A DNA stretch of 64,000 nt from a virus (IMGVR_UViG_3300031521_000029:38171-102170), one strand, 5' to 3'. Positions 27,125 to 42,127 are shown, counted from the stretch's first letter. Made by a program: numbers and translations. Notes: generated by a model from the sequence alone, not told the origin.

Positions 27125-27128
27125 TAAC

Positions 27129-27156
27129 TTGAAAAATTAATCAGTTACAGTATAAT
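27129..27156 (+). promoter_or_regulatory. sigma70-type promoter, nearly leaderless
   Basis: TTGAAA (27129-27134), 16-base spacer and perfect TATAAT (27151-27156), nine bases before the dUTPase ATG. It probably also drives the downstream glycan genes. Confidence 0.75.
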
Positions 27157-27165
27157 AGGTTTTAT

Positions 27166-27732
27166 ATGAGTCATACATTACAAATAAAAAAACTCAATGA
27201 TTTAGCCGTCATTCCATCAAAAGGAAGTCCTCAATCCGCAGGTTACGACCTTTATTCGACAGAAAAATATACACTAAAACCACTTGAAAGAAAACTGTTT
27301 AAGACGGGTCTATCAATGGCAATTCCAAGTGGAATGTATGGTCGTATTGCTCCTAGAAGTGGACTTGCCTATAAACAAGGCATCGATGTCATGGCGGGAG
27401 TCATCGATGAAGATTATAGAAACGAAGTGGGCGTGGTTTTAATCAATCTTAGCAATGAAGAAGTCGTACTTCCAATTGTTAAAGATGGAAAAGAGACGGC
27501 TATAGCTCAAATTATATTTGAATTCTACAACAACGTAAAAATCGGAGTTGTAGATTCATTGGACGAAACCGAACGGGGACTTGGTGGATTTGGCAGTTCA
27601 GACAAAAAAAAAGTAGAATCTCCGAAAGAAGCCCACAGTCTTATTGAAAAATGGAAGGAATCAGGAGCAGAAAATCCGACGCCTTCAAAATACGAAACTA
27701 TTGTCAGAGAAAGAGAAAAATTAATATCATAA
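27166..27732 (+). CDS. dut: dUTP diphosphatase
   Basis: A 188-residue trimeric-type dUTPase with all five motifs: AGYDLY (25-30), PRSGLA (63-68), GVIDEDYRNEVGV (78-90), IAQI (113-116) and RGLGGFGSS (137-145). It hydrolyses dUTP to dUMP and pyrophosphate, keeping uracil out of DNA and supplying thymidylate synthesis. The catalytic domain ends near residue 146. About 40 extra residues (KEAHSLIEKWKESGA...) are unlike the usual family and may bind a partner. It shares a transcript with glycosyltransferase genes, separated by three bases. Confidence 0.97.
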   Translation: MSHTLQIKKLNDLAVIPSKGSPQSAGYDLYSTEKYTLKPLERKLFKTGLSMAIPSGMYGRIAPRSGLAYKQGIDVMAGVIDEDYRNEVGVVLINLSNEEVVLPIVKDGKETAIAQIIFEFYNNVKIGVVDSLDETERGLGGFGSSDKKKVESPKEAHSLIEKWKESGAENPTPSKYETIVREREKLIS

Positions 27733-27735
27733 ATT

Positions 27736-29082
27736 ATGAGTAAACCATTGTGTATATTTCAAAGTCCCATGTGGACTCGAAGCGGTTACGGAGATTTGGC
27801 CCTAGCATTAGCTAAGAGTCTGCTTAGATACGATAAGTACGACTTGATGGTAGTTCCGACTCGTTGGGGTGGATGCAGCCGAAAATACTCGGCAGATGAC
27901 ATGTCAGACCCATTGGAACAAGAACTATTTAAACGAGTCATTCGACAACCATTGAATAAACAACCCGACCTATTCATTCAGTGTTCAATTCCAAATGAAT
28001 TTCAACCACCTGCAAAGTTTAACATCGGCATTACCGCAGGAATAGAAACAACCATCGCACGCCCGGATTGGATTGAGGGATTGAATCGCATGAACTACAA
28101 TATCGTTACTTCGATGCATGCTAAAAAAGTATTTGAAGAAGCGTCCTATCAAAAAATGGACGAACAAACAAAACAAGTAATTCCAGGTCAAGAACTAAAA
28201 TCAATTAAACCAATGGACGCATTGTTCTGGGGAGCAGATACAAGTATCTATGGAACAGGAAAATCGTTTGAACCAAAAGTAGAAATTGAACTCGAAGCAG
28301 TAAAGGAAGATTTCAACTTTCTATTTGTTGGACAATGGACTAATGGTGGTCTTTTCAACGACAGAAAAGACATTGGCAATCTTATTAAAACCTTCTTGAC
28401 TACGTTCTCAAACATGGGAGCAAAACCAAAGCCAGGCTTGATTATTAAGACAAGTGGCGCTGCGATTTGTAACATGGACAAACATGATATAATCAATCGT
28501 CTAAGGACAGTTAGAGGAATCGTTGAACAAGAAAAAGGAACAAAGGATTTACCAAACGTTTATATTCTTTACGGTGAACTAACTGAATCTGAAATGAATG
28601 CTTTATATAACCATACCAAGGTTAAAGCCCATGTTTCGTTTACTCACGGTGAAGGATTTGGTATGCCACTTCTTTTGTCATCTTTGAGTGGTAAGCCTGT
28701 ATTAGCATCCAACTGGAGCGGTCATTTGGATTTCCTAGATAATAACTTTTGTAAATTACTTGACGGTGAAGTTAAACCTTTGCCTCCTGAATGTGTTAAT
28801 GAATGGTTAATCAAAGATTCTGCGTGGTTTAATGTAAACTACATGAAAGCATCAGAAAGTATGAAAAACTGTTTTCATTTTTATCGTCCATATCTTGAAA
28901 AAGCTGACAAACTTCGTCAAAAAAATGAAGTTGAATTCTCAACTCAGGCAATGGATAAAAAGTTCTGGGAGTATTTGGAAACGCACGTTCCAAAATTTGC
29001 TACTGAACAGAAATTGATTCTTCCTAAACTAAATAAGGTGGTAAAACCAATTATCACAAGTCCGAACACTGGTTCCATATAA
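27736..29082 (+). CDS. GT4-type glycosyltransferase
   Basis: A 448-residue GT-B enzyme. The N-domain has a Gly-rich acceptor loop (SPMWTRSGYGDLA) and the C-domain has FLFVGQWTNGG and THGEGFGMPLLLSSLSG, the ExFGxxxxE-type donor site. It would move a sugar from an NDP-sugar to a glycan, protein or DNA acceptor. It is intact, unlike the split gene upstream. The stop codon overlaps the next gene by one base. Confidence 0.85.
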   Translation: MSKPLCIFQSPMWTRSGYGDLALALAKSLLRYDKYDLMVVPTRWGGCSRKYSADDMSDPLEQELFKRVIRQPLNKQPDLFIQCSIPNEFQPPAKFNIGITAGIETTIARPDWIEGLNRMNYNIVTSMHAKKVFEEASYQKMDEQTKQVIPGQELKSIKPMDALFWGADTSIYGTGKSFEPKVEIELEAVKEDFNFLFVGQWTNGGLFNDRKDIGNLIKTFLTTFSNMGAKPKPGLIIKTSGAAICNMDKHDIINRLRTVRGIVEQEKGTKDLPNVYILYGELTESEMNALYNHTKVKAHVSFTHGEGFGMPLLLSSLSGKPVLASNWSGHLDFLDNNFCKLLDGEVKPLPPECVNEWLIKDSAWFNVNYMKASESMKNCFHFYRPYLEKADKLRQKNEVEFSTQAMDKKFWEYLETHVPKFATEQKLILPKLNKVVKPIITSPNTGSI

Positions 29083-29759
29083 TGAGATTATCGTATCTAG
29101 TTACTGTAAAAAACGAAACTGACACGTTGATTCGGCTTTTAGAAAAGCTGGTCAATAGTCGGGCCGAAGGTGACGAAATTGTTATTGTAGATGATTATTC
29201 TAATAATCCTACAACAATAAAACTTTTAACCGATGTTTGTAAAAATCGTGACGTTTTTGTGTATCTTCATAAGTTAGATAATGACTATGGCGTACATAAA
29301 AACTTCGGAAATACAAAATGCACAGGAGATTGGATATTTCAGTTAGACGGAGACGAATTGCCATCTGACACTTTGATTTTTAATATAAGAGACATCATAT
29401 CAACCAACGTTGACATAGAATTGATATATGTTCCTAGAATTAACGATTTCAAAGGAGTTACCGAAGAACATGCTAAACGATGGGGATGGAAACTAACACC
29501 ATCTCCGTCTTATGACAACAGACCGATTATTAATTGGCCTGATTTTCAGGGTAGAATCTATAAAAAAGATTTGAACCGAATTAAATGGGATAGAAAGTTA
29601 CATGAAAAAATTGTTGGACATGAAAAATATTCATTTCTACCAACTGATGAAGACTTCTCTCTTTATCACGATAAAACAATAGAAACACAAATACAAACGA
29701 ACCTAAGATACAATAAACAATTTAGTGTTGAAGATAATCTTGGTCACAAAGTAACATGA
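29082..29759 (+). CDS. GT2-type glycosyltransferase
   Basis: A 225-residue GT-A enzyme starting RLSYLVTVKNETDTLI and DEIVIVDDYSNN, with the DxD-like metal site in FQLDGDELP (about residues 85-93). It is short for GT2 and lacks membrane helices, so it is cytoplasmic. ATGA overlap with the next methyltransferase gene suggests coupled expression and a shared product. Confidence 0.85.
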   Translation: MRLSYLVTVKNETDTLIRLLEKLVNSRAEGDEIVIVDDYSNNPTTIKLLTDVCKNRDVFVYLHKLDNDYGVHKNFGNTKCTGDWIFQLDGDELPSDTLIFNIRDIISTNVDIELIYVPRINDFKGVTEEHAKRWGWKLTPSPSYDNRPIINWPDFQGRIYKKDLNRIKWDRKLHEKIVGHEKYSFLPTDEDFSLYHDKTIETQIQTNLRYNKQFSVEDNLGHKVT

Positions 29760-30355
29760 GTGAATGGATAATAAAAAATAACGCCTATAAAAAAGGTATA
29801 AAAGACATCGTCAATAACGATAAAACATTTCAAGAAATTTACCAAGATGTTTTAAATCTTGGTTACAATACTGACAAAGGAACTACTCATGCGTATGTAG
29901 ATAGTTATGCCGAACTATTTAAACCATATCGTAACTTACCAATTAACTTACTTGAAATCGGTATAGATTTTGGATATAGTTTAGCTTTATGGAGAGCATA
30001 TTTCGATAAAGCTCTAATATACGGAATAGATGTTAGAAACGTATTACAATTTACTGAAGATGTGACTCCTATCATTTATGACGGAAACGACCCGTCTATT
30101 ATTGAAAAATATTTTTCTAACATTCAGTTTGATATCATTATTGACGACGCAAGTCATGAAGTTGAACATCAAGTATTACGATTTCCAATTTATTTTCCAA
30201 AACTAAAATCTGGAGGATTATATGTAATTGAAGACGTTCAGGATGTAGATGGTCAAGGAACACAACTAACATCATTAGATTCTTCTGCTCAAATTATCGA
30301 CAATAGAAAAGTTAAAGGCAGATACGATGATGTAATGATAATTTATAGAAAATAA
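29756..30355 (+). CDS. class I SAM-dependent methyltransferase (macrocin/cephalosporin-hydroxylase-like)
   Basis: A 199-residue protein. Motif NTDKGTTHAYVDSYAELF, then LLEIGIDFGYSLALW (SAM-binding) and FDIIIDDASHEVEHQ (metal/catalytic Asp-Asp), then GGLYVIEDV. This is the sugar O-methyltransferase group near macrocin O-methyltransferase. A related enzyme lies at 39113-39742. It likely methylates a sugar hydroxyl in the glycan made here. Confidence 0.83.
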   Translation: MSEWIIKNNAYKKGIKDIVNNDKTFQEIYQDVLNLGYNTDKGTTHAYVDSYAELFKPYRNLPINLLEIGIDFGYSLALWRAYFDKALIYGIDVRNVLQFTEDVTPIIYDGNDPSIIEKYFSNIQFDIIIDDASHEVEHQVLRFPIYFPKLKSGGLYVIEDVQDVDGQGTQLTSLDSSAQIIDNRKVKGRYDDVMIIYRK

Positions 30356-30357
30356 CA

Positions 30358-31593
30358 ATGAATAAAAACTACAAAGACTTGTCAATATGTCCAGTATCTT
30401 TATCTAAAGAGCATTTGACATATTTAGATTTTGGATTAATGCCTTTGGTGAATAACCTAAACAACACAAAGGAAGAATCTTTAAATTGTCCAAAATATCC
30501 TCTCGTAGTTAATTATTATCCAGAAAGTAAACTATCCATGTTATCAGTGGCAGTTGACCCTTCCATTTTATTTGCCCATTATGTTTATAAATCAGGAACA
30601 AGTCAACCGTATATAGAGCATTGTAAAGAAATGTATAATTACATTTCAAAATTTGTCACTATAAACAATGATGACAGATTCGTTGACATTGGAGGTAATG
30701 ACGGAACTTTATTATCTACATTTATAGAAACTTCAGATAAAAAACTTGACGTAATAAACGTAGACCCATCTGACAATCTTGGAAAAATTTGTAGAAAAAA
30801 AGGCATCATAACATTAACAAAAATGTGGGATGATACCATAGGAATTCAGATGAAAGAGACGTGTAAAGTTATCACATCTACAAACGTATTTCAACATACA
30901 CAAAGTATAGGCAATTTCGCCAGTGGTATATGGAACGCTTTAAAAGATGATGGTATTTGGTGTCTTGAATTTCCATATTGGAGACACGACCTGGAAACCA
31001 ATCAATATGACCAAGTGTATCACGAACATATCTACTACTATCTTTTAACTCCTTTGTTCAAACTGTTTAATGATAGAGGATTTAAAATACTTGATGTATC
31101 TGAACAAAAGATTCATGGCGGAAGTCTTCGTATTATAAGTCAAAAAAGAAACGTAAATAACGATGTAATACCAGAAAGCGTGACAAAAGTTCTTGAATCT
31201 GAAAAAATATTTGATGACAACTTTTACAAAACGTGGGGAGAAAATATGAAAGTTCATATAACAGACAGTAAAAAGTTTCTTTCCAATCTCAAATCGTCAG
31301 GCAAGAAAATTGCTGGATTTGGGGCCGCTGCCAAAGGATGTACATTCTTAAATGCTGCCGGGATAAATCATGAACTTATAGACTACATTGTCGATGATAC
31401 TGATACAAAACAAAACAAATTTATGCCAGGAGTCGGAATAAAAATTGTTAATAGACAACATCTAATTGATAATACACCAGATTATATCGTAATTCTGGCC
31501 CATAACTTTGCAGATTATATCAAATCATCATTAAGACCTATTTATAATGGCAAATTTATTGTTATGTTTCCACAACCTGTGATTTATGACTGA
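30358..31593 (+). CDS. sugar C-methyltransferase (NDP-hexose C-methyltransferase type)
   Basis: A 411-residue protein with the architecture of deoxysugar C-3-methyltransferases (TylC3/NovU): a SAM domain with FVDIGGNDGTLLS, then the conserved FPYWRHDL, YDQVYHEHIYYY and HGGSLRI, and a C-terminal Rossmann-like domain with GFGAAAKGCTFLN. The N-terminal zinc-ribbon cysteines typical of the family are missing (only SICPVSL remains). Known enzymes act on NDP-4-keto-sugars, which links it to the gmd product. It overlaps the next gene by eight bases. Confidence 0.85.
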   Translation: MNKNYKDLSICPVSLSKEHLTYLDFGLMPLVNNLNNTKEESLNCPKYPLVVNYYPESKLSMLSVAVDPSILFAHYVYKSGTSQPYIEHCKEMYNYISKFVTINNDDRFVDIGGNDGTLLSTFIETSDKKLDVINVDPSDNLGKICRKKGIITLTKMWDDTIGIQMKETCKVITSTNVFQHTQSIGNFASGIWNALKDDGIWCLEFPYWRHDLETNQYDQVYHEHIYYYLLTPLFKLFNDRGFKILDVSEQKIHGGSLRIISQKRNVNNDVIPESVTKVLESEKIFDDNFYKTWGENMKVHITDSKKFLSNLKSSGKKIAGFGAAAKGCTFLNAAGINHELIDYIVDDTDTKQNKFMPGVGIKIVNRQHLIDNTPDYIVILAHNFADYIKSSLRPIYNGKFIVMFPQPVIYD

Positions 31594-32554
31594 TTATTCT
31601 CCATCAAACAAATTCATACATCGTCTTATAAATTACTATAAAAAACACACCGAAGTATCTTGTCTTCCTATCTGGACAGGTACTTACAGTCATCTCCGTG
31701 AACTAATCGACAAAGAAGATATAAACGGTTTACGTAACAAATTAGATACGCTCTACATTGACGATTTATGGGGATTGGATTACAACCAACAGAATAGTTG
31801 GAAATTGCCGTCATATGAAAGTTGTTTCAATATATGCATTGACACCATGGCATCAGAACTTAAATTTTATAACGAATCAACCGAAAAAACTGTCGAAGAA
31901 TTAGAAAAGATTGTAGGATTGAGATTTGATATTCCAGAGTTTCCTTACAGACCCGTAATTAAAGTCGGAGATAGAGATATTCCATTAAGATTTGCGGTTT
32001 GTTATTACATTTTTCACTGTTTAACAAAATATTTAGAGAATGACCCAAATAAAGTTTTGGAAATTGGCGCTGGGACTGGTTATTTTCCATTTTTATTTAT
32101 TAAAAAATATCCTAACGTAAAATATAATATTATAGACTTACCAATCATTTCTGTGATTCAAACTTACATTTATGCGACGATGGTTGGTGAGGATAAAGTT
32201 TGGTTTCATGGAGAACCGACAAATGAGTCTGCCAATTTGCGTATTTATGCGCCTGACTCAATTGACGAAATAGAAGGTCTGATTGATGTAGCATTGAACC
32301 ACAACTCATTTCCAGAGATTCCTCAAGATGTCCAAGAAAAATATCTTGAAAAGATGAAACAACTGTTTTCTTCTAAAGGATTCTTCTATTCGGTCAACTG
32401 GGAACCACATAATAGCGACCAAACTCCTGTAACTGTGGCTTGTAATAAAAATGGACTTACAAATATCAGTCGAAGACTATTCCCAGTTGAAAGTTTTGTT
32501 CACGAACAAACCTCAATCGCATTTTACGAAGAAATATATAAATCAAATGAGTAA
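31586..32554 (+). CDS. putative sugar O-methyltransferase
   Basis: A 322-residue protein with a class I SAM site VLEIGAGTGYFPFLF (about residues 153-167) followed by YNIIDLP. It has a helical N-terminal domain. The pattern (GAGTGYFP, IDLP, SFPEIP) fits the putative sugar O-methyltransferase family of O-antigen clusters. It continues the methylation module with the two upstream genes. Confidence 0.72.
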   Translation: MTDYSPSNKFIHRLINYYKKHTEVSCLPIWTGTYSHLRELIDKEDINGLRNKLDTLYIDDLWGLDYNQQNSWKLPSYESCFNICIDTMASELKFYNESTEKTVEELEKIVGLRFDIPEFPYRPVIKVGDRDIPLRFAVCYYIFHCLTKYLENDPNKVLEIGAGTGYFPFLFIKKYPNVKYNIIDLPIISVIQTYIYATMVGEDKVWFHGEPTNESANLRIYAPDSIDEIEGLIDVALNHNSFPEIPQDVQEKYLEKMKQLFSSKGFFYSVNWEPHNSDQTPVTVACNKNGLTNISRRLFPVESFVHEQTSIAFYEEIYKSNE

Positions 32555-33275
32555 AAGTTTAATTGCAATTCTACACTACAATTCAATCCAATATACGGAT
32601 AATTTGTATGAAATGTTAAAACCATACGAACGTAATGATTATGATTTGGTGGTTATTGATAACGGTAGCGATGAAGGAAAATCAAGCAAGTATTCAACCT
32701 ACCGTTCAGACGAGAATACGTGTTATGGTGGAGGTTTGGACATGGCATTGAACCTATTTATTGAAGACAAACAATACGACTCGTTTACATTACTCAATTC
32801 TGATATTATAGTTCATGGTTATAACTTCATTAAGTCGTTGAGAGAACAATTATTTAAACAAGACGATTTAATGGTCATTTCTCCATGCGTGATTCAACCA
32901 GAGAAAAACCAATGTTTTTGGAAACAATGTCATTGTTGGAATGCAAAGGAAATACGAATAGTCCCTTTTGTAGACTATCAATGCGCTTTTATGAAACGTC
33001 AGTTTGCTGAAAAGGTTCAATCCTTTGGTAGTAAGTATGGATGGGTTCAAGATATTATGACAGGAATTATCTGTGAAGATAACAATTGGAAGATTGGTGT
33101 CTGTGATTGGTTGCCTATCGTTCATATCGGCAATGGAACAGTAAAAGATAACCCTAAAATGTATAATTATAATATTCTTGCCCAAGAAGAGATGAATAAG
33201 TATTTCTTGGAAAAAGGATTGACAAACAGGGTAAATCAGTTAAAATTGAAATCTATAGGTTATAAATATGAATAA
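32547..33275 (+). CDS. GT2-type glycosyltransferase
   Basis: A 242-residue GT-A enzyme from the ATG at 32547, which overlaps the previous stop by eight bases; the longer frame above it is not needed. It has LIAILHYNSIQYTDNL, LVVIDNGSDEGKSS and a metal site near LLNSDIIVHG. It is short and membrane-free. The overlap with the nucleotidyltransferase gene (ATGAATAA) ties it to the RuBisCO-like cassette. Confidence 0.82.
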   Translation: MSKSLIAILHYNSIQYTDNLYEMLKPYERNDYDLVVIDNGSDEGKSSKYSTYRSDENTCYGGGLDMALNLFIEDKQYDSFTLLNSDIIVHGYNFIKSLREQLFKQDDLMVISPCVIQPEKNQCFWKQCHCWNAKEIRIVPFVDYQCAFMKRQFAEKVQSFGSKYGWVQDIMTGIICEDNNWKIGVCDWLPIVHIGNGTVKDNPKMYNYNILAQEEMNKYFLEKGLTNRVNQLKLKSIGYKYE

Positions 33276-34008
33276 AATAAACGTGGTAATACCAATGGCA
33301 GGTCTTGGAAAGAGATTTTCGGACTGCGGATACAAATTACCAAAGCCATTTTTACCAATCGGCGATAAGACGATGATTGAACAAGTCATCTTAAATTTGA
33401 ATCAATTCGGTCATCATACATTCTATTTTACTTTTGTAATAAATATGAATCAGCTTGATGTTGGTGAATTTGAAAATAAATTAAAAAATCTCAATCTCAA
33501 GAATTATCAAATCGTCTTCATAGATTTTGTTCCAAAAGGGCCCGCGGCATCTGCATTAATTGGTGTTGAAAAAACCGACATTTCATTGCCATTGATTATC
33601 ACAAATTGTGACCAAATCATTGAAGATTATAATTTTGAACTTTTCAACAAATTCTGTGATGTGAATCAAGCCGAAGGTGTGTTGGGGACATTTCATTCAT
33701 CAAGTCCAAAAAACAGTTACGTTAGATTAAGCGATACCAATGAGGTAATCGATGTAAAAGAAAAGGAAGTTATTAGTAATGTGGCAACGAACGGATTTCA
33801 TTGGTGGAAAAAAGGAGTATTCTTTGTAACATCAGTAAATCAAATGAAACAAAATAATGATACGGTAAATGGCGAATTCTATGTTGCCCCTTCTTACAAT
33901 TACCTTATTCAGAAAGGTATGAAGGTTATGCCTTACTCTTTTAATATGCATTATCCAATTGGAACTCCTAAAGATTATGAAACGTATAAGACGTTAAGAC
34001 ATCTATGA
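33268..34008 (+). CDS. sugar-phosphate nucleotidyltransferase
   Basis: A 246-residue enzyme with the RmlA/GT-A-like nucleotidyltransferase signature INVVIPMAGLGKRF (4-17), then YKLPKPFLPIGDK, and TNCDQIIED as the metal-binding part. It would activate a sugar phosphate or other phosphorylated metabolite to its CDP, UDP or GDP form. It is the first gene of a four-gene chain (overlaps of 4 bases each) with the cupin, RuBisCO-like and phosphodiesterase-like proteins, so it probably activates the product of those enzymes. Confidence 0.88.
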   Translation: MNKINVVIPMAGLGKRFSDCGYKLPKPFLPIGDKTMIEQVILNLNQFGHHTFYFTFVINMNQLDVGEFENKLKNLNLKNYQIVFIDFVPKGPAASALIGVEKTDISLPLIITNCDQIIEDYNFELFNKFCDVNQAEGVLGTFHSSSPKNSYVRLSDTNEVIDVKEKEVISNVATNGFHWWKKGVFFVTSVNQMKQNNDTVNGEFYVAPSYNYLIQKGMKVMPYSFNMHYPIGTPKDYETYKTLRHL

Positions 34009-34325
34009 AAGTAATAAGAAACCAAAAATGGACAGGTGGTTGGTTTATTGGTAATTTTGAACCGTCCGCATTTAAAACCGACGAAGTTGAGGTATGTTTT
34101 AAACAGCATGCAAAAGGAGAGAAGTGGCCGACCCATTATCATAAAATTGCCACCGAAATTAATTATGTTATTCGTGGCAAAATGACCATTCAAAATGACA
34201 CATTCAATACTGGCGATGTGTTTATTATTGAACCAAATGAAATCGCCGACCCCATGTTTTTAGAGGATTGTGAATTAATTGTAGTAAAATTGCCATGCGC
34301 AAAAAACGATAAATACGAGATATGA
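34005..34325 (+). CDS. cupin-domain protein
   Basis: A 106-residue single cupin. The first motif is present as THYHKIATEINYVIRGKM, with His44, His46 and Glu51 as metal ligands. In the second motif the His ligand is replaced by Asp82 (EIADPMF). Small cupins of this kind act as sugar isomerases, epimerases or metal-dependent binding proteins. The ATGA overlaps on both sides mean it is made together with the nucleotidyltransferase and RuBisCO-like protein. Confidence 0.82.
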   Translation: MKVIRNQKWTGGWFIGNFEPSAFKTDEVEVCFKQHAKGEKWPTHYHKIATEINYVIRGKMTIQNDTFNTGDVFIIEPNEIADPMFLEDCELIVVKLPCAKNDKYEI

Positions 34326-35524
34326 TAGACATTTTCAGACCAAATTACGACGAGTCAATTCTAAATAAATACTACTTGGTTACTTACTACTTAGAGAGTC
34401 GAACCACGTTAAAGGATGCTGCGTGGAATCTTGCAATTGGTCAATCAGTAGGAAATCCACACAATCGTTCAGAGTTTGAAACGGATAAATTATTTGAAGA
34501 CCACTCATGTCTTATTCTGGCTCATCCAGATGAACTAAATGAACTTCAAAAAGGAGAGGTCGTTATTGCATTTCCTGAAAAGAATATCAACTTTACAGAA
34601 GACGGCATCTCATCATTGTTGGTTCAAATCATGGGCGGGCAATGTGATATTGACGTTGTTCATAAATGTGTGGTAAAAAACATTCAACTTACCAGTTCAA
34701 TGCTTGGATGTTTAAAACGTCCATATTTCGGATTAAGTGGTATGAGAAAATTCTGTCAAGTTCCTAATAATCAGGTATTGTTTGGAGCTATCGTTAAACC
34801 GAAAGTAGGCCTCGCACCAAAAAAACATCTCGAACTTGTAAAACAATTCATAGATAACGGTTGTAATTTTATTAAAGAAGATGAAATTTTATCCAATCAA
34901 GCATTTTGTCCAATCGAAGAACGTGTACCTCTTGTAGCAAATTACATCCGTAATACCAATGCCAAAGTGTTTTATTGTGTATCTCTACAAGCGGATGCAC
35001 ATAAAGTATTAGAATATAGTAAACGTGTATTGGAATTGGGTGGTAATGGAATACATGTAAATTTTCATTGTGGCATGGGAATCTATAAATCAATTCGTGA
35101 AATGAATCTTCCACTTTTGATGCACTTTCAGAAGAGCGGAGATAAAATTTTAAATTGTATTGACCACAGATATTCTATTGACCAGTCAGTATTATTCAGA
35201 TTAGCTGCCTTAAGTGGTTGTGATACGTTACATGCAGGAATGATAGGCGGTTATATGGATAATGATACTGAGGAATTGAAAGTCATCATAAAACAACTAA
35301 ATGAAATTAACGCCGTACCAGCTCTAAGTTGTGGCATGCATCCTGGCCTTGTTGATTACATAACTGACATATTAGGTCATACCAATTGGATGGCAAACGT
35401 TGGCGGAGCCATCACATCACATCCAAATGGAACGGCGGCAGGAGTTAGGGCAATGAATCAAGCCGTGACTAAAAATTATGGAGATGATTATGAATCTGCA
35501 ATTAAGAAATGGGGTAAAAAATGA
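34322..35524 (+). CDS. RuBisCO-like protein (form IV-type)
   Basis: A 400-residue member of the RuBisCO large-subunit superfamily. By alignment to spinach RuBisCO, it keeps Lys175 and Lys177 (K159, K161 in IVKPKVGL), the carbamylated Lys201 with Asp203 and Glu204 (K185, D187, E188 in FIKEDE, followed by ILSNQAF), His327 (H304), Ser379 (S336) and the phosphate-loop Gly pair (361-362). It has lost His294 (Gln270), Arg295 (Lys271), Asn123 (Gly106) and the loop-6 Lys334 (Tyr311). It should therefore bind a metal and enolise a phosphorylated ketose-like substrate, without CO2 fixation. The cassette of nucleotidyltransferase, cupin and phosphodiesterase-like genes points to sugar-nucleotide chemistry. 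The substrate is unknown. Confidence 0.88.
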   Translation: MIDIFRPNYDESILNKYYLVTYYLESRTTLKDAAWNLAIGQSVGNPHNRSEFETDKLFEDHSCLILAHPDELNELQKGEVVIAFPEKNINFTEDGISSLLVQIMGGQCDIDVVHKCVVKNIQLTSSMLGCLKRPYFGLSGMRKFCQVPNNQVLFGAIVKPKVGLAPKKHLELVKQFIDNGCNFIKEDEILSNQAFCPIEERVPLVANYIRNTNAKVFYCVSLQADAHKVLEYSKRVLELGGNGIHVNFHCGMGIYKSIREMNLPLLMHFQKSGDKILNCIDHRYSIDQSVLFRLAALSGCDTLHAGMIGGYMDNDTEELKVIIKQLNEINAVPALSCGMHPGLVDYITDILGHTNWMANVGGAITSHPNGTAAGVRAMNQAVTKNYGDDYESAIKKWGKK

Positions 35525-36003
35525 AATTTATCAGCCATAGAGGCAATATCAACGGTCAAAAATCAGAAAAAGAAAACAAACCATCTTATATTCAAAAAGC
35601 ATTAGATGCTAATTTTGATGTAGAAATTGATGTATGGTATTATAACAAAAAATGGTGGCTTGGTCATGATAGACCACAGTACAAAACAACGTTCAGATGG
35701 TTATTTCAAAGACATAGTAAATTATGGATTCATTGTAAAAACCTGGAAGCGTTACATAAATTAACAAGACGTGATGGTAAAAATTTATGGAATCAAAACT
35801 TAAATTATTTTTGGCATCAAAATGATGACTTTACGTTAACAAGTAAAGGATTTATTTGGACATATCCAAGACAACCATTAACTAATAATTCTATATGTGT
35901 TTATCCTGAAAAGTTTGCAGGCTTAAAAAAAGAATTAGATAATTGTCATGGAATGTGTTCTGATAACATAGCTGAAATAAAAGGCAAACGAATCTATGAA
36001 TAA
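35521..36003 (+). CDS. short glycerophosphodiesterase-like protein
   Basis: A 160-residue protein starting ISHRGNING, with a VEIDVWYY strand and LGHD. These match the HR(G), ExD and H catalytic positions of glycerophosphodiester phosphodiesterases/PI-PLC (His6, Arg7, Glu35, Asp37, His49). It is shorter than the usual 240-260 residues, so it is a compact member. It overlaps the RuBisCO-like stop by four bases and the next gene by eight. It may act on a phosphodiester intermediate or product of the cassette. Confidence 0.75.
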   Translation: MKFISHRGNINGQKSEKENKPSYIQKALDANFDVEIDVWYYNKKWWLGHDRPQYKTTFRWLFQRHSKLWIHCKNLEALHKLTRRDGKNLWNQNLNYFWHQNDDFTLTSKGFIWTYPRQPLTNNSICVYPEKFAGLKKELDNCHGMCSDNIAEIKGKRIYE

Positions 36004-36799
36004 ATTAGTTTTATATTGTAAATCATTCAGCCGCGATGTTCATCGTTGTAAATTACTTCTTGATTCTGTCATAAAGTATAATAAAGATTCTATACCATTT
36101 TACATATCCGTTCCTAAAGAAGATATTCAGTTATTCAAAACGACATTAGGAATCGATGGATACGTTCTTATCTCGGACGAAGAACTCATGAATGAGTCGT
36201 TATGTCAATCTTGGAAAAACCAACAAATCGTTAAGATGGTATTCTGGAAAAATATAGAAACTGAAAACTATGTGATTTTGGATTCAGATTCTTACTTCAT
36301 AAAGGATTTCTATTACAAGGATTTCTTAGTTACCGATTCCATCCCTTACACTGTGATGCACGAACAGAAGGATTTGTTTCAATGGACGGCAAGATACAAA
36401 GACCATCTTGGATTCAACCCACAACAATCGTTTGCCGAATGTAGAACACCAATTCAAGAGTTATTTGATAGAAAAGGAAGACTTTATGACTTTGGGCCTG
36501 TTCCAGTCATCTGGTCTTCAAAAGTGTGGCAAAGTTTGGAAGAAGAATATATTAAACCAAATAACTTGACATTTGAAGGTTTAATTAATACAATATCATC
36601 GGAATTCACCTGGTACGGGGAATGGTTTTTGGTAAGAAAACCCATTGAATTATGGCCTATCGAACCAATTTTTAAAGTGTTCCATTATATGCCAGAATAC
36701 CAACAACTAAAACAGTTAGGTTATACCGAAGAACATTGGAAAGATAATTACTTGGGTATAGTGATGCAATCGAGTTCAGGATTACCATTACAATATTAA
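35996..36799 (+). CDS. DUF6492-type glycosyltransferase-like protein
   Basis: A 267-residue protein with a GT-A-like core (LVLYCKSFSRDVHRCKLLLDSV in parts; NYVILDSDSYFI as the DxD metal site; then YDFGPVPVIWSS). This fits the DUF6492 family, found in polysaccharide clusters and predicted to transfer sugars. It is the last gene of the overlapping chain that starts with the methyltransferases. Confidence 0.75.
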   Translation: MNKLVLYCKSFSRDVHRCKLLLDSVIKYNKDSIPFYISVPKEDIQLFKTTLGIDGYVLISDEELMNESLCQSWKNQQIVKMVFWKNIETENYVILDSDSYFIKDFYYKDFLVTDSIPYTVMHEQKDLFQWTARYKDHLGFNPQQSFAECRTPIQELFDRKGRLYDFGPVPVIWSSKVWQSLEEEYIKPNNLTFEGLINTISSEFTWYGEWFLVRKPIELWPIEPIFKVFHYMPEYQQLKQLGYTEEHWKDNYLGIVMQSSSGLPLQY

Positions 36800-36800
36800 T

Positions 36801-37052
36801 ATGATAAAATCAATAAAAATTCATATAATTTATAATGTAATATATTTTTGCATTATTATACTAATATGTCTAATTAAAAACAGTCCACCAACCATTGATA
36901 CTGATAAGTTGCAAAAATTATGTAATAAATACACAGAATATGGTTATTTTTGTGGGCAACAAGATGCTTTAACTAACAATTATAGAATTGCATATGTTAC
37001 TAATATTGTTACTACTACGAACAAAGAATGGATATGGATTAAATCTCCGTAG
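36801..37052 (+). CDS. small single-span membrane protein, possible stop-codon interruption
   Basis: An 83-residue protein with one N-terminal transmembrane helix (VIYFCIIILICLI, about 14-26) and a soluble tail (GYFCGQQDALTNN). It ends in TAG at 37050-37052. The same frame then continues for 25 coding-like residues (DVKPKNPTITNL...FKDTQ) to a TAA at 37128-37130. Either the stop is a recent nonsense mutation, or it is sometimes read through. It is unlikely to be an enzyme of the glycan pathway. Confidence 0.55.
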   Translation: MIKSIKIHIIYNVIYFCIIILICLIKNSPPTIDTDKLQKLCNKYTEYGYFCGQQDALTNNYRIAYVTNIVTTTNKEWIWIKSP

Positions 37053-37130
37053 GATGTAAAACCTAAAAATCCAACTATTACTAATTTAAATTTTACTAAT
37101 GTTCAGGAACTTTTTAAAGATACTCAATAA
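37053..37130 (+). other. in-frame extension after the TAG of the membrane protein
   Basis: Twenty-five sense codons and a TAA follow the TAG in frame, with amino-acid composition like a normal protein. Other genes in this window use TAG as a true stop (for example the HNH gene at 1586) and long genes have no internal TAG. A general recoding of TAG is therefore not supported. Confidence 0.35.
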
Positions 37131-37169
37131 TTTCCTAACGTTTTATATCCTAACGATATATTTATTACT

Positions 37170-37319
37170 ATGGGCCGGAATAAACTAAACCGAACAGACG
37201 AAGAAATACGAGAACAAAATCGTATTCGTCAAAGGAGATTTTATGACAAACATAGTAAGCGAATTAGAAAAGAAAAACTTAAAAAATATTACGAACGAAA
37301 AAAAGAGGAATTGTCCTAG
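37170..37319 (+). CDS. small basic protein overlapping the NUMOD3 homing gene
   Basis: A 49-residue, highly basic, helical reading (RTDEEIREQNRIRQRRF, then KHSKRIRKEK). It overlaps the start of the NUMOD3 endonuclease gene by 77 bases in another frame. Such basic N-terminal segments are often seen fused to homing endonucleases, so a frameshift between the two is a possibility. Otherwise it is a separate small DNA-binding protein. Confidence 0.4.
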   Translation: MGRNKLNRTDEEIREQNRIRQRRFYDKHSKRIRKEKLKKYYERKKEELS

Positions 37320-38070
37320 TTGTGGTAAAGAATTATTTTATAAAACGAAATGTGGGTTTGACAAGGCAAATAGTAATAATTCAAAATGTCATACTTGTTC
37401 TAGTTCAGGAGAAAACAATGGATTTTATGGCAAGAAACATTCTAAACAATTAAAATCAAAGTTCTCTAAAGAGAGAAAATCGTGGTATATTGGGAAAGAT
37501 AATCCAATGTATAAACAATCCGTTTATGATTTGTGGGTTAAAAAATATGGAAAAGATGTTGCCGATGAAAAACAGAAAATTGCCAATCACAAAAATAAAT
37601 TGTCCAATGATGGAGAAAACAATGGATTTTATGGCAAGAAACATTCTAAACAATTAAAATCAAATTTTTCTAAAAATAGAATAGGCAAAACCAATCCCAA
37701 TCATGGAAATAAACACACGGAAGAATGGAAAGAGAATCAAAGAAAACGAACAATTCAAAGAATTAAAGAGTTTACTCAAGGAAAAATAGGATTTAATCCT
37801 AATGCATGTAAATATTTAGATAGATTAAATGAAGAACGGGGATGGAACCTACAACACGCTTTAAATGGTGGAGAAGTTGAATGTATAGGTTATAGTTTAG
37901 ATGGATATGATAAAAAGAGAAATATTGTAGTAGAATATGATGAACCATTACATAATAAACCAACACAAAGAAAAAAAGATATACTACGAATGAATAGAAT
38001 TAAAAAATATTTACATTGTAAATTTTATAGATACAATGAAGAAACTAATGAGTTAAAAAAATATGAATGA
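37243..38070 (+). CDS. homing endonuclease with NUMOD3 repeats
   Basis: A 275-residue protein. The N-terminus has a zinc module (Cys24, Cys27, Cys49, Cys52). Two NUMOD3 DNA-binding repeats (GENNGFYGKKHSKQLKS, about 56-72 and 124-140) follow. The C-terminal nuclease-like core (NACKYLDRLNEERGW; YDKKRNIVVEYDEPLH) is related to the enzyme at 25202-25864. It has a strong AAAGGAG ribosome site unlike most neighbours. It is a mobile gene between two glycan genes, overlapping the next one by eight bases. Confidence 0.85.
   Translation: MTNIVSELEKKNLKNITNEKKRNCPSCGKELFYKTKCGFDKANSNNSKCHTCSSSGENNGFYGKKHSKQLKSKFSKERKSWYIGKDNPMYKQSVYDLWVKKYGKDVADEKQKIANHKNKLSNDGENNGFYGKKHSKQLKSNFSKNRIGKTNPNHGNKHTEEWKENQRKRTIQRIKEFTQGKIGFNPNACKYLDRLNEERGWNLQHALNGGEVECIGYSLDGYDKKRNIVVEYDEPLHNKPTQRKKDILRMNRIKKYLHCKFYRYNEETNELKKYE
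37408..37460 (+). repeat. 53-bp exact direct repeat, copy 1 (NUMOD3)
   Basis: Identical to 37612-37664, 204 bases (68 codons) apart and in frame. It encodes the NUMOD3 motif GENNGFYGKKHSKQLKS. Confidence 0.93.
37612..37664 (+). repeat. 53-bp exact direct repeat, copy 2 (NUMOD3)
   Basis: Second copy of the 37408-37460 repeat inside the homing endonuclease gene. Perfect identity suggests a recent internal duplication. Confidence 0.93.
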
Positions 38071-38959
38071 ATCACCGATATCATACTGTATAGGAACGTG
38101 TAATAACCTTCCTTACTTAAAACTTGCAATAGATTCTGTTCGTAAATATTCACATTTTAAAAATTCTCCTATTATAATCTTTGCGGAAAATTGCGATAAA
38201 GATAATACCTATGAATGGTTAAATGAAAATAAAGAAAAATATAATTTAACAGTTATAATAGAAAATAACGAAAATCCAAAGGGTATAGGACAGTCGATGA
38301 ACGTTACGGCAAGTCAGGCCAAGACCGAATACATTTTATTTTTGCATAGTGATATGTTTATCAGTAAGAATTTAGATTTAGAATGTCTTAAAATATTTGA
38401 AAAATATCCCAATGAAAAACTTTGGGTTAATCCATTCCGGTTTCAGCCGAATTGTTTTAAAGAAAATGATAGACCAGGAACCAATTTTTTTAGTTACGAA
38501 CATTTTGGTTATAAAGCCGATGATTTTGATGAACCATTCTTTATTGATTACGCCGAAGAATTTTCTAAATTAAATCCAAATGTTGAAATACCAAAAGGCG
38601 AGGGTGTAAGTGGAATGATTCGTAAGTCGGATTGGGATAGTCTTGGAGGGTGTGACCCACAATTTATTGCTTATTATGATGATTCTGATATTTTTCTTAG
38701 GGCAAGATTGGCTGGTTATAAATTTATAATTACAACTAATACTGTGGCGTGGCATTTTGGTAGTAGGTCAGATAAAAGTAATTTTCCAACAGACGAAATA
38801 ATTCGGTCAGAGAAATCTAAACACTATGAAATGGAAAGTTCACAAAAATTTTACAAAAAGTGGGGATTTTTACCAATAAATGATAAATATGGATTCGTAG
38901 ATTTTCCACCAAATATTGATAAAACCAAATATGAACATTTAACCAGATTAAATGTATGA
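38063..38959 (+). CDS. GT2-type glycosyltransferase
   Basis: A 298-residue GT-A enzyme: ISYCIGTCNNLPYLKLAIDSV, a substrate loop with ILFLHSDMFIS (metal-binding HxD-type), and a C-terminal YYDDSDIFLRARLAG followed by WHFGSRS, which is common in phage and capsule GT2 enzymes. The 42096 gene has a similar motif set (NNLPYLKLA; YEDSDIFQR), so these two are related. Eight-base overlap with the homing gene. Confidence 0.87.
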   Translation: MNESPISYCIGTCNNLPYLKLAIDSVRKYSHFKNSPIIIFAENCDKDNTYEWLNENKEKYNLTVIIENNENPKGIGQSMNVTASQAKTEYILFLHSDMFISKNLDLECLKIFEKYPNEKLWVNPFRFQPNCFKENDRPGTNFFSYEHFGYKADDFDEPFFIDYAEEFSKLNPNVEIPKGEGVSGMIRKSDWDSLGGCDPQFIAYYDDSDIFLRARLAGYKFIITTNTVAWHFGSRSDKSNFPTDEIIRSEKSKHYEMESSQKFYKKWGFLPINDKYGFVDFPPNIDKTKYEHLTRLNV

Positions 38960-39138
38960 AAAGTATCGATGAAATTACATATCAAAAATATTTAGATGAC
39001 CATTATTCTAAATTTATTAGAGTAATAGGCGATTGGAAAGTTCTTGATGTGTGTCCTATGAATTTTAATTTATTTTTATCACATAAAAAATTTGGATTAT
39101 TTAAAGAATTTTATGAAACAACTATCAGAACTAGCTAA
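38956..39138 (+). CDS. short protein, possibly a methyltransferase remnant
   Basis: A 60-residue reading starting in an ATGA overlap with the GT2 stop and overlapping the next gene by 26 bases. It contains DWKVLDVCPMNFNLF, which looks like a partial SAM-binding strand, then runs out. It may be a broken gene or a short real protein. Confidence 0.4.
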   Translation: MKSIDEITYQKYLDDHYSKFIRVIGDWKVLDVCPMNFNLFLSHKKFGLFKEFYETTIRTS

Positions 39139-39742
39139 AAACTTTAGTACAGACAAAGGCATCGGACTTCACGAGTATACGGAAGTTTATGATGACTATC
39201 TTTCAAAATTGAAAGACGATAAAATGAATTTTCTTGAAATCGGAGTCTTTACAGGAGAATCATTAAAACTATGGGAAGCATATCTTCCAAACTCCAACAT
39301 TATTGGACTGGATATCAATCCAGACTGCGCAAAGTATGCAGGCGGACGTAAAAAGGTCTACATCGGTTCACAAACAGATGACGTTCTCCTATACACTATT
39401 GCCAAAGAAAATGCGCCTATATCTGTCATTATTGATGACGGCAGTCATAACTGGGACCATCAAATAATTACATTTCGTGCATCATTTCCGTTATTGAAGC
39501 CAGGCGGCCTTTATTTCATAGAAGACCTCCACACATCATATGCTGGTAATTGGGCGGGTGGCACGCAAACTGGCGTCGATTTCCTCAAAGATTTGGTGGA
39601 TGATGTGATGTTGCATGGTAAAAGTTTCATGGGAACTCAAGAAATTGGAAATCAACCACTATCTTACATTGAACATCACATCGAATATATTCATTTCTAT
39701 AAAAGCCTCTGTGTCATAAAAAAACGTGAAATAGCTTTGTGA
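39113..39742 (+). CDS. class I SAM-dependent methyltransferase
   Basis: A 209-residue enzyme from ATG 39113. STDKGIGLHEYTEVYDDYL, MNFLEIGVFTGESLKLW, SVIIDDGSHNWDHQI and GGLYFIEDLH match the macrocin O-methyltransferase group, as at 29756-30355. The Asp-Asp-Gly-Ser-His set is the metal/catalytic site. It likely methylates a sugar in the island's product. It overlaps the GTG start of the fucosyltransferase-like gene by four bases. Confidence 0.85.
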   Translation: MKQLSELAKNFSTDKGIGLHEYTEVYDDYLSKLKDDKMNFLEIGVFTGESLKLWEAYLPNSNIIGLDINPDCAKYAGGRKKVYIGSQTDDVLLYTIAKENAPISVIIDDGSHNWDHQIITFRASFPLLKPGGLYFIEDLHTSYAGNWAGGTQTGVDFLKDLVDDVMLHGKSFMGTQEIGNQPLSYIEHHIEYIHFYKSLCVIKKREIAL

Positions 39743-40530
39743 TAACCTGTAAATTCATAGGCAAGTTGGGCAATCATATGTATCAGACTGCTGCGACGAT
39801 TAAACTCGCTGAACAGTTAAATACCGATTTTGTACTTCCTGCAAAGTCTCACGCAGGTCATTATGGTGACATATCTCCTGACTTCTCTGGATTTTCATAT
39901 CCATTCAAGTTTCAAGATGTTAATTTACCAAATAAATTCAATCAACCAACGTTTGGTTATACCCCAATCGAAGTAAAAGATGACTTAGAATTAAACGGAT
40001 TTTATCAAGCTCATCAATATTTCGATGACGTTCGAGATAAATTAATAAACAAATATTTCAAATTTAAAGATGAAATAATCAATTGGTCACACAAATATGA
40101 GATTACTGAAAACAGCGTCGGTATAAGTGTAAGACGTGGCGATTATCTTTGGCTACAACACAATCATTGTGTCTTATCATCTAAATATTATCAAGATGCT
40201 TTGAGTCAGATTACAGACGTCGATAAAATATTCTTTTTCAGTGATGATATTAAGTGGTGTCGTGAAAATACATTTCTTTCAGAAGATGATTCTGATATGG
40301 TGACTTTTGTAGAAGATGATAAGTGGGTTCAATTATACATGATGACCCAAATGAAACAGTTAATTTTATCAAATTCTACCTTTGCTTGGTGGGGTGGTTA
40401 TCTTAATACTAAAGCCACTAAAATTATTATTCCTGACCCTTGGTTTGGGCCGGCCAATGACCATCATGATTCAAGTGGATTGTATTGTCCAAATTGGATT
40501 AGACAAAAACATAACATTGTGATTGTATGA
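39739..40530 (+). CDS. GT11 alpha-1,2-fucosyltransferase-like protein
   Basis: A 263-residue enzyme starting with GTG. GT11 motifs are visible: CKFIGKLGNHMYQTA (acceptor), SVRRGDYLWL (donor site, VxRRGD) and LSNSTFAWWGGYL. Known enzymes transfer L-fucose from GDP-fucose. With gmd and an RmlD-like reductase in the same window, a GDP-deoxysugar donor is plausible, though a typical Fcl is not seen. It overlaps the preceding and following genes by four bases. Confidence 0.9.
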   Translation: MITCKFIGKLGNHMYQTAATIKLAEQLNTDFVLPAKSHAGHYGDISPDFSGFSYPFKFQDVNLPNKFNQPTFGYTPIEVKDDLELNGFYQAHQYFDDVRDKLINKYFKFKDEIINWSHKYEITENSVGISVRRGDYLWLQHNHCVLSSKYYQDALSQITDVDKIFFFSDDIKWCRENTFLSEDDSDMVTFVEDDKWVQLYMMTQMKQLILSNSTFAWWGGYLNTKATKIIIPDPWFGPANDHHDSSGLYCPNWIRQKHNIVIV

Positions 40531-41195
40531 AAGTAGCCATAATAATTCCAGGTCAACCACGAAATATTCAAGTAGCATATGATTCACTAAAGGAACATTA
40601 TTTGGATAAACATGATTGTGATTTCTTCATTCACACGTGGTTTGATAAAAAATTCCCATCCGAAACCTACGGGAAAATGATTGACTTATTCAAACCAAAA
40701 AAGATATTAATAGAAGACCAAATCATATTTGATAGTGAAGGAAGAAAACAAGAACCTTGGAATACTCCGTTACAAAATCTATTGTCGATGTATTATTCTA
40801 TGTTCATGGGCAATCAATTGAAATGTAAATACGAAGAAGAAAAGAATTTCAAATATGACTTCGTTATAAAAATGAGAAGCGATTTAAAAATTCACAGACC
40901 TATCCCACTCGACCAAATAGAGCCAAACAAATTAGCGCTTTACAAATGGACTCAATTAGGTTACACTGGCAGTTCAGATGTTTTTGCGGTTGGGTCGTCA
41001 AAAATCATGGATATATATTCATGGTTGTATAATAGAGTAATGTATTATTTAGATGAAGACCCTACGTGGAATATTAATGAACCAAAAATGAGGGCTGAAT
41101 ATATTCTCCACCATCATTTGAATACGAACGATGTTCCTGTTCAAATCTTTTGGCATGGTGACCAGACCGACCCAAGTTTCCATTTAATTAGATGA
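40527..41195 (+). CDS. putative glycosyltransferase
   Basis: A 222-residue protein. VAIIIPGQPRNIQVAYDSL at the start and FVIKMRSDLKI with ALYKWTQLG resemble uncharacterised phage and polysaccharide-cluster glycosyltransferases that share a GT-A-like core (RSD as the metal site). ATGA overlaps on both sides place it inside the transfer module. Confidence 0.65.
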   Translation: MKVAIIIPGQPRNIQVAYDSLKEHYLDKHDCDFFIHTWFDKKFPSETYGKMIDLFKPKKILIEDQIIFDSEGRKQEPWNTPLQNLLSMYYSMFMGNQLKCKYEEEKNFKYDFVIKMRSDLKIHRPIPLDQIEPNKLALYKWTQLGYTGSSDVFAVGSSKIMDIYSWLYNRVMYYLDEDPTWNINEPKMRAEYILHHHLNTNDVPVQIFWHGDQTDPSFHLIR

Positions 41196-42127
41196 AAACT
41201 CGTATTATAATTCATGTATTGCCTTTCGAGATTGATAGGTTTGAGCATCAAATGTTTGAGCTTAAAAAGAACTTTGCATTTCTAACAGAAGATGACGTTG
41301 TGGATTTTGATGTTACATTAAATGTCAATAATCTACTTACCGATTGGGATAATAGTCTACTTCCTCAACGTTATTTTATAGATAGATATTATGAAATAGC
41401 ATTAGGTCTATTTCAAAAAGAAAAAATGAGCTTTAACATCAGCGCCAATAACGAATGTTTAGGAGTGGATGATAAAAGACGACAGGCAATAAGAAAACAC
41501 GCCTCCACTTGTGACAATTTCTTATATCTGGACAATGATATGTTCTATCCTAATACAACATTGAAATATATGTTGGACGCGGCTAAATCTATAAAAAATC
41601 AATATTATATTCTATCCCCCCAATTGCCTAAACTGTGGGAACCAAGTTGGGATGTATTAGTGAATGAAAATTACATCAATAAACCATTTGAAGATTCTAC
41701 GTGTGAAAAATATACTACTGACCAATTTGAAGTATTTACAAGAGATTATGGTGATATTGAAGTAGTTCCTATTAATACATTCAAAATGGGTGGCGGGTGG
41801 TTTAATTTAATATCATCCAATCTTCTGGCATATACAGACATTCCTGATTCATTCGGCCCTTATGGTCTTGATGATACATTTGTTATAGATGCCTGTAAGA
41901 TTATGAAAAGTCTTAATATGGATGTTCAACAGTATGTATTAAAGAATCTTGTAGTTACACAGAGTTATCAATATGAGTTACATCATGTCTATAAGAATTA
42001 CCTAAAATTTAATATAAAACAAAAACAGATTTTTGCCGCCAATGCTCAGAAATCATACCAAGACGAAATAAACAAATTTTCAGAAAGATGTAAACATGAT
42101 ATCATTCATAATTCCAACAAGAAATAA
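41192..42127 (+). CDS. putative GT-A glycosyltransferase
   Basis: A 311-residue protein. The core YLDNDMFYPNTTLKYML carries a DxD-type metal site; MGGGWFNLIS and GPYGLDDTFVID lie in the acceptor half. It has no membrane helix. The next gene starts 32 bases before its stop, in another frame. Confidence 0.7.
   Translation: MKTRIIIHVLPFEIDRFEHQMFELKKNFAFLTEDDVVDFDVTLNVNNLLTDWDNSLLPQRYFIDRYYEIALGLFQKEKMSFNISANNECLGVDDKRRQAIRKHASTCDNFLYLDNDMFYPNTTLKYMLDAAKSIKNQYYILSPQLPKLWEPSWDVLVNENYINKPFEDSTCEKYTTDQFEVFTRDYGDIEVVPINTFKMGGGWFNLISSNLLAYTDIPDSFGPYGLDDTFVIDACKIMKSLNMDVQQYVLKNLVVTQSYQYELHHVYKNYLKFNIKQKQIFAANAQKSYQDEINKFSERCKHDIIHNSNKK

What the first reader, a model, noticed from the sequence alone, without database searches (positions are those of the whole stretch)
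33268..36003. RuBisCO-like protein in an overlapping four-gene cassette inside a phage glycan island
Four genes (nucleotidyltransferase, cupin, RuBisCO-like protein, phosphodiesterase-like protein) overlap by 4 bases each, so they are translationally coupled. The RuBisCO-like protein keeps the carbamylated Lys, Asp and Glu metal site (K185, D187, E188), Lys159, Lys161, His304 and Ser336. It loses loop-6 Lys334 (Tyr311), His294 and Arg295. Known RuBisCO-like proteins enolise or decarboxylate phosphorylated ketoses in methionine salvage or apiose-type pathways. The neighbours suggest a new phosphorylated sugar that is enolised or rearranged and then activated to an NDP-sugar. I know of no described phage pathway of this kind.
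Basis: partly seen in the sequence, partly recalled or inferred. Interest (0 to 1): 0.88.

Follow-up and report, generated by a model that had tools for sequence, protein, structure and literature searches.

The report
RuBisCO-like enzyme in phage sugar module
Hundreds of uncultured phage contigs, and a few bacteria, carry a distinct relative of the carbon-fixing enzyme RuBisCO that has lost the residues needed to fix CO2 and almost always sits with genes for making activated sugars, so it is probably a sugar-remodelling enzyme and should not be read as viral carbon fixation.

Summary
Four genes (nucleotidyltransferase, cupin, RuBisCO-like protein or RLP, GDPD-like mini-barrel) lie at 33268-36003 with 4-bp ATGA overlaps. 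The RLP is a true RuBisCO-superfamily protein (PF00016 E=4e-33; model pLDDT 95; Foldseek top hits are Form III RuBisCOs). The overlaps mean little, but co-occurrence means a lot: at least 237 IMG/VR contigs encode relatives. Of 65 non-redundant RLP loci, 63 have the nucleotidyltransferase, 61 the GDPD-like gene, 55 the cupin and 51 all four, in shuffled order. SAR11 chromosomes carry a three-gene version; Azospirillum oleiclasticum carries all four. The RLPs form a clade apart from the sampled MtnW, OiaX-like and Form I/II/III proteins. All 68 aligned members share GQSxGNP for ESSTGTW, Gly for Asn123, HxQKSGD for HxHR and GMxGGY for loop 6; KPK and the KxDE carbamate/metal site are kept. Carboxylation is therefore unlikely. 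In related phage loci the RLP position is taken by HAD phosphatases or by an RpiB domain fused to the same nucleotidyltransferase. Best reading: a metal/carbamate-dependent enolising isomerase or lyase acting on a small ketose phosphate, probably pentulose-derived, that feeds an NDP-sugar made for a glycan. Substrate and product are unproven.

The parts
33268..34008 (+). Sugar-phosphate nucleotidyltransferase (NTase), PF00483
   Evidence: E=5.7e-09; profile relatives in 63 of 65 non-redundant RLP loci; closest solved structure 4evw, E=1e-25
34005..34325 (+). Small cupin (ChrR-like Cupin_7) with conserved HxHxxxxE metal motif (H44, H46, E51)
   Evidence: E=4e-07; alignment A3; in 55 of 65 RLP loci
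34322..35524 (+). RuBisCO-like protein, 400 aa, of a clade not matched by the RuBisCO/RLP references sampled
   Evidence: PF00016, structure model and Foldseek, residue tables, trees
35521..36003 (+). GDPD-like mini (beta/alpha) barrel, 160 aa, motifs HRGN, EN, ExD, GHD
   Evidence: alignments A4/A6, model pLDDT 94, weak GDPD match; in 61 of 65 RLP loci
34005..34008 (+). ATGA 4-bp overlap NTase/cupin
   Evidence: sequence read
34322..34325 (+). ATGA 4-bp overlap cupin/RLP
   Evidence: sequence read
35521..35524 (+). ATGA 4-bp overlap RLP/GDPD-like
   Evidence: sequence read
26135..43352 (+). Surrounding glycan island: glycosyltransferases, methyltransferases, DUF6492 protein

Best explanation
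The cassette makes an activated (NDP-linked) small sugar for a phage-directed glycan. SHOWN: the RLP has the RuBisCO fold, keeps the carbamate/Mg site and the catalytic KPK lysines, and has an invariant re-modelled substrate pocket; it is genomically tied to the NTase, the GDPD-like gene and usually the cupin. INFERRED: the RLP, activated by a carbamylated Lys185 and Mg2+, abstracts a proton from a phosphorylated ketose (most likely a pentulose phosphate) with Lys159 as base, and lets the enediolate collapse to an isomer, epimer or shorter ketose instead of capturing CO2. The metal-binding cupin carries out a further isomerisation. The NTase joins the sugar phosphate to a nucleotide, and glycosyltransferases of the island use the product. 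The GDPD-like protein acts on a phosphodiester or pyrophosphate of this pathway; its role is the least certain.
For: RuBisCO fold. All 68 aligned members keep K159, K161, K185, D187, E188, S336, G361 and G362, and share G40, N45, P46, G106, Q270, K271 and Y311, so the pocket is specialised and not decaying. NTase 63/65, GDPD-like 61/65, cupin 55/65 near the RLP in any gene order. The full module is in Azospirillum oleiclasticum, whose RLP is only 33-34% identical to the window's. Slot exchange: all 11 cupin-anchored loci that lack the RLP carry a HAD or RpiB domain instead, against 6 of 38 with the RLP (Fisher p=4e-07). The same NTase family is fused to RpiB in SynMITS9220M01 and L163 and to RibB in S-SKS1. 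RpiB and RibB both act on ribulose 5-phosphate (established biochemistry).
Against: No biochemistry. No close homologue of known function. Within this family nothing identifies the substrate, nucleotide or product. HAD_2 phosphatases, the commonest alternative partners, do not point to pentuloses. RpiB fusions were few (4 of 61 PDE-anchored loci) and RibB-NTase fusions lack the cupin and GDPD-like gene. Slot counts come from loci selected by similarity to this module and ignore shared ancestry; the profiles for the alternative enzymes were built from a few sequences.
Confidence: 0.55

Rival explanations
1. A phage auxiliary RuBisCO that fixes CO2 on ribulose 1,5-bisphosphate during infection.
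For: Fold and carbamate/metal site are kept; viral rbcL is listed as carbon fixation in surveys (PMC12607003).
Against: Residues needed for carboxylation are replaced in all 68 aligned members: Glu60 to Gly, Thr65-Trp66 to Asn-Pro, Asn123 to Gly, His294-Arg295 to Gln-Lys, Lys334 to Tyr. Scores 134 bits against a 497-bit cut-off for Form III.
Confidence: 0.02
2. A methionine-salvage RLP: DK-MTP-1-P enolase (MtnW), or an MTA-shunt isomerase with its cupin partner as in Rhodospirillum rubrum.
For: Superfamily match to MtnW; an RLP plus a cupin also occurs in the R. rubrum shunt (own knowledge).
Against: 85-116 bits against MtnW cut-offs of 409-514; separate branch in the trees; the reference MtnW has KGV where the family has invariant KPK; conserved neighbours are sugar-nucleotide genes, not mtn genes.
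Confidence: 0.04
3. A sugar-acid decarboxylase like OiaX (3-oxo-isoapionate 4-phosphate decarboxylase), making a tetrulose phosphate that the NTase activates.
For: Decarboxylation also runs through an enediolate in this fold; 117 bits to the OiaX model; a C4 product would parallel the RibB-NTase fusion of S-SKS1.
Against: Far below the 700-bit cut-off; separate clade; no sugar-acid dehydrogenase or four-carbon-acid kinase found among the recurrent neighbours, whereas several reference bacterial RLPs sit beside such kinases.
Confidence: 0.14
4. The RLP is a non-catalytic scaffold or regulator of the NTase, kept for its fold.
For: No substrate known; many loci carry the chassis without it.
Against: Metal and lysine sites and the new pocket residues are invariant in 68 diverse members, which is not expected of a pseudo-enzyme.
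Confidence: 0.05

Closest known systems
Form IV RuBisCO-like proteins (MtnW/YkrW, OiaX-like, R. rubrum-type)
   Same: RuBisCO fold, KxDE carbamate/metal site, no carboxylation expected, enolisation chemistry
   Different: Separate clade, distinctive pocket signature (GQSxGNP, HxQKSGD, GMxGGY), mainly viral, tied to an NTase and glycan genes
Archaeal Form III RuBisCO (2d69, 3a12, 1geh)
   Same: Best fold matches (TM 0.86-0.88, about 20-22% identity); KPK and KxDE kept
   Different: Glu60, Thr65, Trp66, Asn123, His294, Arg295 and Lys334 all replaced
Unassigned GOS RuBisCO homologues (PMC1821046)
   Same: Marine, outside Forms I-IV, active-site changes including N123; could be the same family
Cyanophage NTase modules with HAD, RpiB or RibB (S-CAM9, SynMITS9220M01, S-SKS1)
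   Same: Same NTase family; GDPD-like gene in the first two and cupin in SynMITS9220M01; glycan island of T4-like phages
   Different: No RLP; a HAD phosphatase, RpiB or RibB domain in its place

Membership tests
RuBisCO superfamily | RuBisCO_large catalytic domain and fold | tested here: met
   PF00016 E=4.4e-33; Foldseek E=9e-31 to 2d69, TM 0.88
RuBisCO superfamily | Carbamylated Lys, Asp and Glu metal site (KxDE) | tested here: met
   K185, D187, E188 in 68 of 68; carbamylation itself not testable here
Bona fide RuBisCO (Forms I-III) | Carboxylation residues Glu60, Asn123, His294, Arg295, loop-6 Lys334 | tested here: not met
   All replaced in 68 of 68
MtnW (DK-MTP-1-P enolase) | Score above the NCBIfam equivalog cut-off and mtn neighbours | tested here: not met
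   116 bits vs 409 and 85 vs 514; neighbours
OiaX | Score above the 700-bit cut-off | tested here: not met
   117 bits
Form IV RLP (broad sense) | RuBisCO homologue lacking carboxylase residues, grouping outside Forms I-III | tested here: met
   the named subclades IV-GOS, IV-Photo and IV-DeepYkr could not be compared directly
GDPD family (gene 35521-36003) | Curated family match and full GDPD barrel with HRG, ExD and HD motifs | tested here: inconclusive
   Motifs present; no Pfam match; fold match only E=0.045
NDP-sugar pathway enzyme | Demonstrated substrate and nucleotide product | not testable with these tools
   Needs biochemistry

The most novel reading that the evidence does not exclude
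A RuBisCO-fold sugar-phosphate isomerase or lyase with a new reaction supplies a previously undescribed nucleotide sugar to phage-made glycans; it is one of several interchangeable ketose-phosphate enzymes (RLP, RpiB, RibB, HAD) plugged into a shared NTase chassis, and some of what surveys call viral rbcL is this enzyme and not carbon fixation.
Probability: 0.45. Interest if true: 0.88.

Novelty: new variant of a known kind. Interest (0 to 1): 0.74.

Why it matters
RuBisCO-like proteins are known mainly from methionine salvage and sugar-acid breakdown. A conserved, mostly viral clade wired to sugar-nucleotide synthesis would add a biosynthetic, glycan-related role to the superfamily. It also warns that viral 'rbcL' calls in metagenomes can be misread as viral carbon fixation. 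The invariant pocket signature is a simple test for annotation, and the slot exchange with RpiB and RibB gives a short list of substrates to try first.

Tried and rejected
INPHARED phages hold no tblastn relative of the RLP (two queries), so no cultured phage in that collection has it at that sensitivity. PHROGs has no RLP family match. The portal search (PF07230) was uninformative because nothing rang anywhere. The 4-bp overlaps were dropped as evidence after comparison with other gene pairs. Automatic ORF pruning misread GC-rich Azospirillum and first suggested it lacked the other three genes; a GC3-guided re-read found all four. GDPD membership of gene 4 was not claimed, since the fold match is marginal. 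Active-site geometry in 3D could not be measured, because model coordinates are not readable in the Python box. Literature searches for viral RuBisCO gave only passing mentions.

Full report
OBSERVATION. The four ORFs lie exactly where stated, on the + strand, with ATGA overlaps at 34005, 34322 and 35521. Pfam finds NTP_transferase in gene 1, a ChrR-like cupin in gene 2, RuBisCO_large in gene 3 (E=4.4e-33) and nothing in gene 4. The window is 64 kb of a 102 kb IMG/VR record. It has a family B DNA polymerase, a clamp loader, a processivity factor, a DnaB-like helicase and ribonucleotide reductase; its polymerase is closest (41.5%) to Microcystis phage Mel-JY01, which has a similar gene order running into a glycosyltransferase island but no RLP annotated there. 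It is therefore a T4-like tailed-phage fragment, with a possible freshwater cyanobacterial host (inference). The cassette sits among glycosyltransferases and methyltransferases.

IS IT MORE THAN CHANCE? The 4-bp overlaps are common in this genome (12 of 78 same-strand neighbours) and prove nothing alone. The association does. An alignment-based scan of IMG/VR found 237 contigs encoding a relative, 80 of them kept. Among 65 non-redundant RLP-anchored viral loci of at least 10 kb, 63 carry the NTase, 61 the GDPD-like gene, 55 the cupin and 51 all four. Gene order varies: NTase-cupin-RLP-PDE, RLP-NTase-cupin-x-PDE, PDE-NTase-RLP and others, so the link survives rearrangement. Elsewhere in the window the same profiles find nothing among 87 ORFs. 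In INPHARED only 3 of 50,697 records match the cupin and 16 the GDPD-like protein.

CELLULAR MEMBERS. A scan of about 85,000 genomes for conserved peptides found ten relatives: seven SAR11, one other alphaproteobacterium, one Crocinitomicaceae MAG contig and Azospirillum oleiclasticum. SAR11 copies lie on chromosomal contigs, as NTase-RLP-PDE, PDE-NTase-RLP or PDE-NTase-RLP-NTase, near polysaccharide genes in L018 and L020. A wider profile search found them in 2 of 297 Pelagibacterales genomes, 1 of 385 genomes of the Azospirillum class and 1 of 45 of its genus, so they are rare. The first automatic gene calling wrongly showed Azospirillum lacking the partners; re-reading with codon-position GC gave PDE, RLP, cupin and NTase consecutively, followed by a CysD-like and a CysN-APS kinase gene. 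The whole module is thus in a named bacterial strain whose RLP is only 33-34% identical to the window's.

PROTEIN FAMILY. The model of the RLP has pLDDT 95.3, and its top 50 PDB matches are RuBisCOs or RLPs, best 2d69 (E=9e-31, TM 0.88). In a FastTree tree the 69 family members are one group apart from MtnW, OiaX-like RLPs and Forms I, II and III. In IQ-TREE the group without Azospirillum has bootstrap 100, and with Azospirillum 88. Some SAR11 copies fall among viral ones and others outside them, which suggests exchange between phage and host (inference). The references did not include the named IV-GOS, IV-Photo or IV-DeepYkr clades. The Global Ocean Sampling study reported 65 RuBisCO homologues clustering with no known form (PMC1821046); these may be the same family, which was not tested.

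ACTIVE SITE. Columns were mapped against Form I, II, III, MtnW and OiaX-like references and counted in 68 members. Kept in all: the KPK lysines (K159, K161), K185-D187-E188, S336, and the G361-G362 phosphate-binding glycines; H304 is kept in 63. Replaced in all: Glu60 by Gly40, Thr65-Trp66 by Asn45-Pro46, Asn123 by Gly106, His294-Arg295 by Gln270-Lys271, loop-6 Lys334 by Tyr311. From established RuBisCO biochemistry these losses should abolish CO2 capture while leaving metal-assisted enolisation possible. Invariance in 68 members as divergent as 33% identity argues for a specialised enzyme, not decay.

PARTNERS. The NTase belongs to a phage-rich family (phrog_3980) whose nearest solved structure is 4evw, named only as a sugar pyrophosphorylase. 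The cupin keeps HxHxxxxE. The GDPD-like protein is a compact barrel with HRGN, EN, ExD and GHD motifs; similarity to true GDPDs is suggestive only. Anchoring the survey on other genes shows a wider chassis: of 61 GDPD-anchored loci, 56 have the NTase, 44 a HAD_2 phosphatase and only 6 the RLP. Of 49 cupin-anchored loci all have the NTase and 38 the RLP; all 11 without the RLP carry a HAD or RpiB domain instead, against 6 of 38 with it (Fisher p=4e-07). The test ignores shared ancestry between loci. In SynMITS9220M01 and L163 the NTase is fused to RpiB; in Synechococcus phage S-SKS1 the same NTase family is fused to DHBP synthase RibB (E=5e-65); a few loci have RibB several genes upstream of the RLP cassette.

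MECHANISM. RpiB and RibB both use ribulose 5-phosphate. An RLP is built for enolising ketose phosphates. The simplest account is that the RLP prepares a small ketose phosphate, probably a pentulose or something made from one, which the cupin may isomerise further and the NTase activates. Carbonyl shift, epimerisation and decarboxylation all remain open. The GDPD-like step is unassigned.

NOVELTY. Viral RuBisCO-domain genes have been noted in passing: a landfill survey lists viral rbcL as CO2 fixation and says it also occurs in random IMG/VR viruses (PMC12607003), and a hydrothermal-mat study lists a RuBisCO-domain protein together with an aldolase II protein (PMC10159854). My searches of the held library found no paper describing this module. 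Whether those genes are this family was not tested. The finding is a new variant of a known kind: a RuBisCO-like subfamily with a new pocket and a new pathway context.

Noticed in passing
L146:7001-8428 (Synechococcus phage S-SKS1, HQ633071.1): NTase fused to DHBP synthase RibB (PF00926 E=5e-65); full-length relatives in IMG/VR contigs L148-L154 and L157. An apparent NDP-activation module for a ribulose-5-phosphate-derived C4 ketose phosphate.
   Followed up: partly
L097:4775-5932 (phage SynMITS9220M01) and L163:5521-6684: The same NTase family fused to RpiB (PF02502), followed by cupin and GDPD-like gene, no RLP. Annotated only as 'phosphatase' in the SynMITS9220M01 record.
   Followed up: partly
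L026:7268-8005; also L023 and L025: SAR11 modules carry a second, degenerate NTase paralogue beside the RLP (the AGxGxRF motif reads AGPNNIF in L026), perhaps a pseudo-enzyme subunit.
   Followed up: no
L027:6771-9568 (Azospirillum oleiclasticum): CysD-like and CysN-APS kinase genes directly follow the four-gene module, suggesting a sulfated glycan locus.
   Followed up: no
window 32451-33275: The listed ORF start overlaps the upstream gene by 104 bp; the true start is probably the internal Met near 32547.
   Followed up: no
window 37243-38070: Possible homing endonuclease (repeated ENNGFYGKKHS motif) inserted in the glycan island; not tested.
   Followed up: no
window 3467-4624 (-): GDP-mannose dehydratase-like epimerase, 51-62% identical to genes near RLP cassettes in L004, L005, L006 and L012.
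   Followed up: partly
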